DNA of 64,000 nucleotides from a virus, in IMG/VR virus record IMGVR_UViG_3300003324_000465, positions 42,877 to 106,876 of that record; one strand, written 5' to 3'. Positions 47,074 through 49,712 of this stretch are shown in pieces (position 1 is the stretch's first letter; every line of letters starts with the position of its first letter). A program made the translations under genes and the position numbers. The notes under the pieces are model-generated. The model was not told the DNA's origin. It was given only the letters and a program-made list of their open reading frames with translations, and searched no databases.

Positions 47074-47204
47074 ATAATATAGCGGTTTATAGAATTACAA
47101 CGCTTACCAAACACCAAGCTATAATACGTTCGATTCGTATATGGGCTAATGGAAAACCTCTCGCAAGAGAACTGCCCACATATTCTATAAGATATTCGTA
47201 TTAT
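47074..47204 (+). ncRNA. Candidate Y RNA E6 with tRNA-like T arm
   Basis: Outer stem ATAATA/TATTAT, then TAGCGG, second stem TTATAGAAT (47087-47095) with ATTCTATAA (47182-47190), then TACAACG. Inside is a T-arm look-alike (ATACG-TTCGATT-CGTAT), followed by TGGGC that pairs with a later GCCCA, as an acceptor joined by a loop. The 5' signature is shared with E7 to E10. Confidence 0.6.
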
Positions 47205-47221
47205 ATAAAACAAACACATAT

Positions 47222-47330
47222 ACTGTAGCGGGAAAAATGCAATACAACGTTTATTTGATTAATAAAACACACTACGTTCAAATCGTACACTTGGGTTGGT
47301 TATCCCTTTTTGCTTTTTCATATTCACAGT
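47222..47330 (+). ncRNA. Candidate Y RNA E7
   Basis: Outer stem ACTGT/ACAGT, TAGCGG, second stem GAAAAATGCA/TGCTTTTTC (one bulge), then TACAACG. Inside, a T-arm-like TACG-TTCAAAT-CGTA. The stem sequence differs from E6 but the pairing is kept, which argues for a conserved fold. Confidence 0.58.
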
Positions 47331-47358
47331 AATTATAATATTTGCGGGCAATATTTAC

Positions 47359-47431
47359 GGAAACATGGTGTAAGCAGCATACATCTAGGAATAGATGAGG
47401 CGTAATGGGTTGGACTCCCACGTTTCCATCA
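47359..47431 (+). pseudogene. Degenerate tRNA-like gene
   Basis: GGAAACA pairs with most of CGTTTCC, but the end is ATCA rather than CCA, the T loop is TTGGACT (normally TTCGA), and the anticodon loop is only 6 bases (AGGAAT). Looks like a decayed tRNA or a tRNA mimic. A GC-core motif lies just upstream at 47344. Confidence 0.45.
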
Positions 47432-47442
47432 CATACAATACT

Positions 47443-47563
47443 ATGTAGCGGAAAAATCCTTTACAACGAATAACATATGCCTTGTTAATGTGGTGATACA
47501 CGTAAAAATATTCTGCGATGCGCTACAGTTACGCATTATAGGATTTTTATATTCGCATAGCAT
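47443..47563 (+). ncRNA. Candidate Y RNA E8
   Basis: TGTAGCGG, stem AAAAATCC (47452-47459) with GGATTTTT (47541-47548), TACAACG, then 3' ATATTCGCATAGC that pairs back to GCGGA. An inner ATGCG/CGCAT hairpin takes the T-arm place but without a T-loop sequence. Confidence 0.55.
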
Positions 47564-47633
47564 TCAAAAGAAAAAAAAACATTATTAAATGGTTTTATCG
47601 ACTTGCCAAATACAAGTATAATATTTAATTTTC

Positions 47634-47755
47634 TGTAGCGGATGTCAGCGATTACAACGCATTACGAGCGGGTGATTGTAGGTTCGAGTCCTACTGTCTG
47701 TACCATGTATACAGACATAGCTTAATGGCAAAGCACCTAAAATATATCGCGGGCA
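47634..47755 (+). ncRNA. Candidate Y RNA E9: circularly permuted tRNA module
   Basis: After TGTAGCGG...GCGAT-TACAACG comes GGGTG, T arm GTAGG-TTCGAGT-CCTAC, acceptor strand TGTCTGT and ACCA (47702-47705). Five bases later follow ACAGACA (the exact partner of TGTCTGT), TA, and a D arm GCTTAATGGCAAAGC, then ACCT pairing with GGGT, then ATCGC pairing with the first GCGAT. All tRNA parts except an anticodon loop are present but in permuted order. Bacterial Y RNAs have this same order. See findings. Confidence 0.78.
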
Positions 47756-47781
47756 ATTATTCACAGAAGAACAATGATAAT

Positions 47782-47869
47782 AAGCTGCTACAGCGGAAAT
47801 ACAAGTACAACGAATATTTTTAGACAAAATTAACCGTAAACACCTTGTATTTAATATCCGTAGCAGCTT
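47782..47869 (+). ncRNA. Candidate Y RNA E10 with terminator tail
   Basis: Outer stem AAGCTGCTAC/GTAGCAGCTT (10 bp), then AGC bulge, GGA/TCC, an asymmetric TAATA on the 3' side, and AATACAAG/CTTGTATT, followed by TACAACG. No tRNA-like module. A T-run follows the closing stem, so it can end transcription. This plan (stem, bulge, three pairs, one-sided loop, stem) resembles the Ro-binding half of Y RNAs. Confidence 0.6.
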
Positions 47870-47942
47870 TTTTTATGATTCATCAGCCAAGTATTCAAGA
47901 AAGGATTTTTTATGCTAGATTTTTTTAAAGCAACAGAAGAAA

Positions 47943-48113
47943 ATGGTTTGCGTTTTACTTCATGATGGTGATTATATGTGGATAACTGAAAACGAAGCAT
48001 TTTCAGGACAGCCTATTATTGCTACTGCAGTAATGTATAGGAATCATCCCTTAAGTGATTGGCAATTTGATGAAGAAAGTATCGATATACTAGATTCTAA
48101 GTATACTAAATAA
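47943..48113 (+). CDS. Hypothetical protein, 56 aa, possibly frameshifted
   Basis: Frame begins MVCVLLHDGDYMW. A second short frame (47912, MLDFFKATEENGLRF) has the good ribosome site AAGGATTTTTT but stops at 47965, one frame off. Either two tiny overlapping genes or one gene with a frameshift. Function unknown. Confidence 0.45.
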   Translation: MVCVLLHDGDYMWITENEAFSGQPIIATAVMYRNHPLSDWQFDEESIDILDSKYTK

Positions 48114-48155
48114 TTCGCGGGCAATTTATAAACCGTAGCAAAGGAATAAAATAAC

Positions 48156-49712
48156 ATGAGAAAAAATTTAACACAGGGATCAAAGAAAACAGTCAGTACA
48201 AAGCCGGTGGCACCAGTAGCCATGGGAGTAGCTCATAATCCTAATTATCGGTCAACACCAGTATCTTCATTTGAAGGCAATACTAACTATAAGCTTGATC
48301 CAATTGCAACATTGAAACTGGTAACTGCAAGTTCATTTTTTGGTGAGCCTTCTTTTTATGAAGGAAATACACGTACAGCGTTATTTGAACAGACAATTGA
48401 CGCGGCCCTTGATTATGATTTTTATGCGACACTTGATTGGGCTGGTGTATTACGTAATGCGTATTATATGCGCCTTAATCCTCAAATCATCATGACAAGA
48501 GCAGCAGTGCATCCAAAGCGTGGTGAGTTTACAAAACAATATCCCGGCGCATTTAATACATTTATGGAAATTGTTGCGAAAAGACCGGATGATCTTACTG
48601 CACAGGTAGAATATTACTTGTCAAAGTTTGAAGATCGTAAGGTTCATGGGGTTAAAGCCTCTCGTATGCCTGGAATTATGAAGCGTTCAATAGCACACCG
48701 TCTTGAGCAATTTAATCGTTATCAAATGGCGAAATATGCTAATCGTGGTATCGGTTTAATTGATATAGTTCGTTTAACACATGCTCATGGAGCATTAATT
48801 AACGAACTTATGAAAACTGGCGGAATTAGTATCGATGAGGAAGACCAAACATGGCGTACTATGCGTAGCGCTGGTAAGTCATGGACAGAGATTATTAATT
48901 CAGGCATCACACTAACACACCAAGATATACTTTTTCAAATGCGTTCTATTTTTGATTCTGTTAAGGGTGATACTGCTCAATATATTGCGGGCAAATTTCT
49001 TAATGGGGTCAAGAATGGTAAAATGTTCCCATATCAGTATTATATTGCTTTTCAGCAATTGAGTGAGGATACATTCAGTAATAAGATACTAGCGTTAGAT
49101 ACACTTCAAGAAGCCCTTGATATGTCTATTCGAGAACAGCCAAAATTAGGCGGAAGTGTTGCGGTTGTGGCAGATAATAGCGGATCTATGAATAATCCAC
49201 TTAAAGTAGACGGTCATCAAGTTACAGCAGCGGAAGTAGCTAATTTATCTGCAATTATGACAGCCTACAATGCTACTGATGGAGATGTATTCTCGTTTGG
49301 TACCACGTTAGCAAAGTTATCATATAGCAAGCGTGATGGTATAATGACAAATGCAAAACGGCTTGCTGATTTATCTACTGGATGGGGCACAAATATGGGA
49401 TTGTTCTGGCAATACGCTATACAACATAAAAAGAGTTATGATACCGTATTTGTATATAGTGATATGCAAGCTCTACCTGTTTCTGGATACGGTTATAACA
49501 ACGAAGTAAGAAACATGTATGACATTGTGAACGAATATCGCCGCAAGCTAAATCCAAAGGTAAATGTTTTCTACGTGCAAGTAGCAGGCTATGATAATAG
49601 TGTACAACCAGATAATACATATCGTGCAACTAACCTGTCTGGATGGACAGGTAAAGAGGTTATGTATGCTGCTGCTGTAAATGCTGTGTGGGATGAAGTA
49701 GATAGTAAATAA
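48156..49712 (+). CDS. rsr: TROVE / Ro60-like RNA-binding protein
   Basis: 518 residues, the usual length of Ro60. The TROVE helical-repeat ring covers about 30-330 (YYLSKFEDRKVHGVKASRMPG, AIAHRLEQF, MRSAGKSWTEIIN). The C-terminal third (from about 332) is a vWA domain with MIDAS motif VVADNSGSMNN. Bacterial Ro (Rsr) binds Y RNAs and misfolded RNA; Deinococcus Rsr works with PNPase in RNA decay. Some mycobacteriophages also encode Ro and Y RNA. AAAGGA precedes the ATG. Confidence 0.93.
   Translation: MRKNLTQGSKKTVSTKPVAPVAMGVAHNPNYRSTPVSSFEGNTNYKLDPIATLKLVTASSFFGEPSFYEGNTRTALFEQTIDAALDYDFYATLDWAGVLRNAYYMRLNPQIIMTRAAVHPKRGEFTKQYPGAFNTFMEIVAKRPDDLTAQVEYYLSKFEDRKVHGVKASRMPGIMKRSIAHRLEQFNRYQMAKYANRGIGLIDIVRLTHAHGALINELMKTGGISIDEEDQTWRTMRSAGKSWTEIINSGITLTHQDILFQMRSIFDSVKGDTAQYIAGKFLNGVKNGKMFPYQYYIAFQQLSEDTFSNKILALDTLQEALDMSIREQPKLGGSVAVVADNSGSMNNPLKVDGHQVTAAEVANLSAIMTAYNATDGDVFSFGTTLAKLSYSKRDGIMTNAKRLADLSTGWGTNMGLFWQYAIQHKKSYDTVFVYSDMQALPVSGYGYNNEVRNMYDIVNEYRRKLNPKVNVFYVQVAGYDNSVQPDNTYRATNLSGWTGKEVMYAAAVNAVWDEVDSK

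What the first reader, a model, noticed from the sequence alone, without database searches (positions are those of the whole stretch)
47074..49712. Phage Ro60 (TROVE) gene preceded by a cluster of candidate Y RNAs
Seen: a full TROVE plus vWA gene, and directly upstream five structured RNAs with the same 5' signature. Known: Ro proteins bind Y RNAs in animals and bacteria, and bacterial YrlA-type Y RNAs carry a tRNA-mimicking module; Ro and Y RNA have been reported for some mycobacteriophages. Inference: this is a multi-Y-RNA Ro particle. Having several divergent Y-like RNAs, one with and one without a tRNA module, would be new to me. Possible jobs: tuning phage tRNA stability, gating host PNPase, or decoying a host anticodon nuclease.
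Basis: partly seen in the sequence, partly recalled or inferred. Interest (0 to 1): 0.92.

Follow-up and report, generated by a model that had tools for sequence, protein, structure and literature searches.

The report
Phage Ro60 gene with Y-RNA array
This phage carries a Ro60-type ring protein and, just upstream, five small RNAs that share one Ro-docking stem but carry different tops (one a full tRNA look-alike); many other phages have the same arrangement, so it is a good example of a known but little-understood RNA-handling particle rather than a new kind of system.

Summary
ORF 48156-49712 is a complete Ro60/Rsr protein: every top fold match is a Ro60, the MIDAS is intact, and its His209 aligns with Xenopus Ro60 His187. 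Directly upstream, 47071-47869, are five RNAs that share more than a 5' word. Each has its ends paired (P1), an AGCGG / AUAUUC internal loop, a second helix (P2), then UUACAACG; the heads differ. Y4 carries a full permuted tRNA module (sub-threshold Rfam YrlA, E=5e-4). Y1 and Y2 carry a T-arm hairpin. Y3 and Y5 have no tRNA part. The same loop and helices, with strong compensatory change, occur beside Ro in Bacillus phage G and in 60 of 78 related viral contigs, always on the Ro strand. Related arrays (UUACUUC instead of UUACAACG) flank Ro in several named phages. Best reading: a multi-Y Ro RNP, with Ro as platform and the heads as interchangeable adaptors. Binding and transcription are untested here. 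Novelty is limited: Salmonella already has YrlA plus YrlB, and phage Y RNAs are published. Useful leads are the uncatalogued loop class, the graded heads and a published virion-borne Ro-like protein in a Listeria phage.

The parts
47071..47207 (+). Y1 RNA: P1 10 bp, AGCGG/AUAUUC loop, P2 10 bp, UUACAACG; head with T-arm hairpin (47124-47140) followed by a 5-bp stem, no D-arm
47221..47331 (+). Y2 RNA: P1 6 bp, AGCGG/AUAUUC loop, P2; head with 4-bp T-arm hairpin (47273-47287)
47441..47560 (+). Y3 RNA: P1 6 bp, AGCGG/AUAUUC loop, P2 9 bp; head without tRNA features
47629..47770 (+). Y4 RNA: P1 8 bp, AGCGG/UUAUUC loop, P2; head is a full permuted tRNA module (T-arm, capped acceptor stem with internal CCA, D-arm)
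   Evidence: Rfam YrlA 30.1 bits, E=4.9e-4, gathering 69; module descriptor; fold
47678..47734 (+). permuted tRNA-like module of Y4: T-arm GUAGG-UUCGAGU-CCUAC, acceptor hairpin, D-arm
47782..47869 (+). Y5 RNA, minimal: P1 10 bp, AGCGG/AAUAUCC loop, P2 9 bp, short unstructured head; followed by a T run
   Evidence: fold z=-5.6; R1 model match 33.1 bits (Y5 is in the training set)
48156..49712 (+). Ro60/Rsr protein (HEAT ring plus vWA with MIDAS D340 S342 S344 T412 D436; H209 aligns with Xenopus H187)

Best explanation
The locus makes a Ro60-Y RNA particle with interchangeable RNA parts. Shown by computation: a complete Ro60-type protein, and five adjacent RNAs that keep one closing module (P1, AGCGG/AUAUUC loop, P2, UUAC) while the heads diverge. 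Inferred: the shared module is where Ro binds, because it is the part kept across units and across phages and it sits beside Ro. The bound Y RNA would both cover the outer surface or hole of the ring (gate) and present its head as an adaptor. Y4 would show an elbow, T-arm and acceptor like a tRNA and so recruit a tRNA-binding partner or PNPase, as reported for YrlA and for Deinococcus RYPER. Y1 and Y2 would show only a T-arm, and Y3/Y5 would act mainly as lids. The likely use is quality control or decay of damaged tRNA and other structured RNA during infection, in a phage that also encodes 27 called tRNA genes and an RNA ligase.
For: Ro identity. Array beyond chance. Module: 34 units from the window, phage G and relatives, P1 95% paired with both-side changes at 8/8 pairs, covariation 0.668 vs 0.229 shuffled and at most 0.372 when slid. 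RNAalifold on a MAFFT alignment of 21 short units returns the same P1/loop/P2, 12 of 16 pairs compensated. A structure descriptor that ignores the 3' loop and UACUUC finds 44 units upstream of Ro vs 6 downstream and 2 on the reverse strand in 65 loci. Model R1: 89 matches (E<=1) in 892,760 bases on both strands, all on the Ro strand, 60 of 78 related loci at E<=0.01. YrlA-like modules in Y4 and beside Ro in five named phages; permuted modules 51 on the Ro strand vs 2 on the other. Three T-arm hairpins in the array vs 3 on the whole minus strand of the window. tRNA set; RNA ligase. Function by analogy: PMC8394870, PMC4726728.
Against: No transcript, binding or infection data. The 34 aligned units were partly chosen for pairing, so the covariation is biased upwards. 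R1 recovers Y5 in its own phage (E=2e-5, a training sequence); Y2 is weak (E=1.6) and Y1, Y3 and Y4 are missed. The window's UUACAACG differs from UUACUUC elsewhere. The YrlA match is below the gathering score. 18 of 78 related Ro loci gave no match at E<=0.01. The published vertebrate Ro site (bulged C, PMC4726728) is not the AGCGG/AUAUUC loop. No PNPase or other partner was examined.
Confidence: 0.62

Rival explanations
1. Ro-Y RNP for tRNA defence: the tRNA-mimic heads compete for host tRNA-cutting nucleases or hold cut tRNAs for the phage RNA ligase, protecting the phage tRNA set.
For: 27 called tRNA genes covering all 20 amino acids, RNA ligase at G000 11620-12927; several Ro genes of named phages lie inside tRNA clusters. 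Hughes 2020 suggest competitive inhibition by YrlA (PMC7790460).
Against: The Y4 module lacks an anticodon loop; only one of five units has the full module; no kinase/phosphatase was looked for systematically.
Confidence: 0.2
2. Virion-borne RNP: Ro, perhaps with Y RNAs, is packaged and acts immediately after entry.
For: The Ro-like protein CKA15_055 of a P100-like Listeria phage was detected in purified virions, 20 peptides, 57% coverage (PMC12282133). P100 gp165 is PHROG 850; three hairpin units were read by eye upstream of it.
Against: Contamination of particles by abundant protein is possible; no RNA in virions reported; the window phage is a distant relative.
Confidence: 0.12
3. The repeats are not Y RNAs but tRNA-processing leftovers or cis elements of the Ro transcript.
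For: The array lies among tRNA genes and a degenerate tRNA-like element (47359-47436); no promoter or terminator signal clearly beyond chance.
Against: Compensatory changes in P1, same module beside Ro in distant phages including downstream of Ro; YrlA-like module in Y4.
Confidence: 0.06

Closest known systems
Salmonella Rsr with YrlA and YrlB (rsr-yrlB-yrlA-rtcBA operon)
   Same: Ro60 orthologue encoded next to more than one Y RNA; YrlA has a tRNA-like domain (PMC7790460, PMC9879122); Y4 matches Rfam YrlA below threshold
   Different: five RNAs instead of two, upstream of Ro instead of downstream, loop AGCGG/AUAUUC, no rtcBA operon seen beside it
Deinococcus radiodurans Rsr-Y RNA-PNPase (RYPER)
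   Same: Ro60 fold (2nvo match); proposed tether and gate role
   Different: no PNPase link tested here
Bacillus phage G gp540 locus
   Same: Ro 39% identical; five upstream units with the same loop plus a sixth downstream and a separate YrlA-like RNA
   Different: UUACUUC instead of UUACAACG; these RNAs are not annotated in the record
Thermus phage phiLo Ro60 (PDB 9kop, 9l5y)
   Same: phage Ro60, best fold match to the window protein (identity of the chains to phiLo shown)
   Different: 18% identity; no Y array recognised upstream by eye
Listeria phages CKA15/P100 and Y RNAs reported for mycobacteriophages (Chen 2014, as cited in PMC12282133)
   Same: Ro-like protein close to three highly transcribed regions proposed to be Y RNAs
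   Different: P100 units carry AACAGCAAUUACUA, a different signature

Membership tests
Ro60/Rsr protein | HEAT-ring TROVE plus vWA fold | tested here: met
   AF2 model, top 13 PDB matches all Ro60/Rsr, 9kop E=1.7e-18
Ro60/Rsr protein | intact MIDAS in vWA | tested here: met
   D340, S342, S344, T412, D436 invariant in 13 phage Ro
Ro60/Rsr protein | conserved histidine equivalent to Xenopus H187 | tested here: met
   H209 invariant in 13; profile aligns it with LSH of 1yvp; that H187 is needed for Y binding is from memory
Ro60/Rsr protein | curated Pfam TROVE model match | tested here: inconclusive
   only vWA_Ro60 reached E<=0.001
Ro60/Rsr protein | binds Y RNA | not testable with these tools
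   needs binding assay
bacterial Y RNA (YrlA type) | 5' and 3' ends pair in a stem with an internal loop | tested here: met
bacterial Y RNA (YrlA type) | encoded beside a Ro60 gene | tested here: met
   window, phage G, 60 of 78 related loci
bacterial Y RNA (YrlA type) | tRNA-like domain in at least one Y RNA of the set | tested here: met
   Y4
bacterial Y RNA (YrlA type) | Rfam YrlA gathering score | tested here: not met
   Y4 30.1 bits vs 69; so Y4 is not filed as an Rfam YrlA member, only as YrlA-like
bacterial Y RNA (YrlA type) | bound by Ro, tethers PNPase | not testable with these tools
   needs pull-down

The most novel reading that the evidence does not exclude
Phages use Ro as a common dock for a set of Y RNAs whose exchangeable heads recruit different host or phage RNA enzymes, so one array programs several Ro machines; in some phages the particle is carried in the virion.
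Probability: 0.2. Interest if true: 0.85.

Novelty: new member of a known kind. Interest (0 to 1): 0.5.

Why it matters
Why phages carry Ro60 is open. A conserved docking module repeated about 3 to 8 times with different heads gives a direct test of the tether/gate model: swap or delete heads and see which partner and which RNA substrate changes. The AGCGG/AUAUUC class found no Rfam 15 family in the loci scanned and can be modelled for annotation; it would also explain some 'tRNA' calls next to phage Ro genes.

Tried and rejected
Ro protein from the window alone in viral contigs: no relatives; the 13-protein alignment was too divergent to scan; the three-protein alignment worked. Gathering-level Rfam scan: only tRNAs in the window. 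Promoter and terminator scan: promoters at chance level, terminators 5 vs 2.9 expected, none at the array ends. A looser P1 test around UACUUC in named phages was poorly anchored and called few units significant, including only 2 of 7 motif hits in the window; counts for those phages rest on reading the sequence. Anticodon-nuclease decoy considered and ranked low. Claim of novelty for mixed heads rejected on literature. Chen 2014, Sim and Wolin 2018 and Sim 2020 are not held, so whether phage G's array was already listed could not be checked.

Full report
What was checked. The window is bases 42877-106876 of a 106,876-bp virus record. ORF 48156-49712 encodes 518 aa. It matches PHROG 850 RNA-binding protein at E=8e-41 and Pfam vWA_Ro60 at E=4.8e-8. 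A profile of 13 phage Ro proteins matches Xenopus, Deinococcus and human Ro60 structures. The MIDAS residues and H209 are invariant in that set, and H209 aligns with the histidine of the LSH motif in 1yvp. The AF2 model has only Ro60/Rsr structures among its 13 best PDB matches.

The array. AGCGG-N3-20-ACAACG occurs five times, only here, versus 0.12 expected. Each unit has a closing helix P1, a loop AGCGG opposite AUAUUC (variants UUAUUC and AAUAUCC), and a second helix P2 ending at UUACAACG or UACAACG. P1 pairing of single units ranges from p<0.0005 to p=0.08 against shuffles of the 5' arm. Heads: Y4 has T-arm, capped acceptor stem and D-arm in the permuted order of YrlA. Y1 has a T-arm followed by a short stem, Y2 a 4-bp T-arm, Y3 and Y5 none. 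Three T-arm hairpins in 0.8 kb compare with three on the whole minus strand of the window.

Generality. Bacillus phage G, whose Ro is 39% identical, has five upstream units with the same loop and a sixth downstream. Eighty related viral loci were fetched. GAAGCGG is in 47 of 77 upstream regions and 3 downstream. A descriptor blind to the 3' loop and to UACUUC found 44 upstream units versus 6 downstream and 2 on the reverse strand in 65 loci. Of 81 signature hits, 43 pair better than 95% of shuffles. A 34-unit alignment shows strong compensatory change. It was partly selected for pairing, so the less biased support is RNAalifold on a plain MAFFT alignment of 21 short units. Model R1 gave 89 matches at E<=1, all on the Ro strand, some downstream of Ro, with at least one at E<=0.01 in 60 of 78 related loci, and 19 matches at E<=0.1 in gut-genome Ro loci. 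In the window's own phage it recovers Y5 clearly and Y2 weakly.

Other phages. Reading the upstream or downstream sequence shows UUACUUC-type units in Streptomyces, Gordonia, Arthrobacter, Caulobacter, Brevundimonas and crAss001 phages. Sub-threshold YrlA matches occur beside Ro in phage G, Frankenweenie, BRock, Kikimora and CcrColossus. Permuted tRNA modules number 51 on the Ro strand and 2 on the other, although some of the 51 may be neighbouring tRNA pairs. Relatives also carry a 200-237-nt class with its own conserved head.

Function. [quoted passage not shown] By analogy the common module is the Ro dock and the heads are adaptors. This step is inference. The phage also has 27 called tRNA genes and an RNA ligase, which fits RNA repair or quality control. 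A published Listeria phage found its Ro-like protein in purified virions and proposed that highly transcribed RNAs upstream are Y RNAs (PMC12282133). In related P100 I read three hairpins upstream of the homologue.

Novelty. Salmonella has two Y RNAs beside Rsr (PMC9879122) and Y RNAs were reported in mycobacteriophages (cited in PMC12282133). From memory, Chen 2014 described likely Y RNAs near Ro60 in more than 250 bacterial and phage species, with at least one tRNA-like one per species. So this is a new member of a known kind. The loop class found no Rfam 15 match at gathering level in the loci scanned, and in the more permissive scans the only matches to a Y RNA family were the YrlA ones listed above.

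Noticed in passing
window 47749, 47344, 46896, 48117, 48987 and elsewhere: GCGGGCAA is over-represented (46 sites with up to 1 mismatch vs 18.6 expected), exact copies mostly on the + strand and often inside AATAATTCGCGGGCAATTATT; one copy forms part of the 3' side of Y4. Role unknown.
   Followed up: partly
window 47359-47436: Degenerate tRNA-like element between Y2 and Y3, with a very short anticodon loop, not called by ARAGORN.
   Followed up: partly
window 45855-45937, 54800-54890, 60740-60815: T-arm-like hairpins outside called tRNA genes, perhaps uncalled or decayed tRNAs.
   Followed up: no
L009 3673-3763, L012 3886-3960, L013 3128-3195: Annotated phage tRNAs (Pro, Ser, Gln) just upstream of Ro overlap YrlA-like matches and are probably Y-RNA tRNA modules.
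   Followed up: partly
L018 3490-3716 and relatives: 200-237-nt Ro-linked RNAs with their own conserved head (GACUAGAAAU, ACCUC..GAGG hairpin) and no Rfam match in L018.
   Followed up: partly
window 39344-41929: Large ORF upstream of the region has intein-splicing and LAGLIDADG matches; probably terminase with an intein.
   Followed up: no
L012 7461-7806: Permuted tmRNA (Rfam RF04321) in Brevundimonas phage Kikimora near Ro.
   Followed up: no
L006 2140-3240: Second vWA protein of unknown function elsewhere in the same phage.
   Followed up: no
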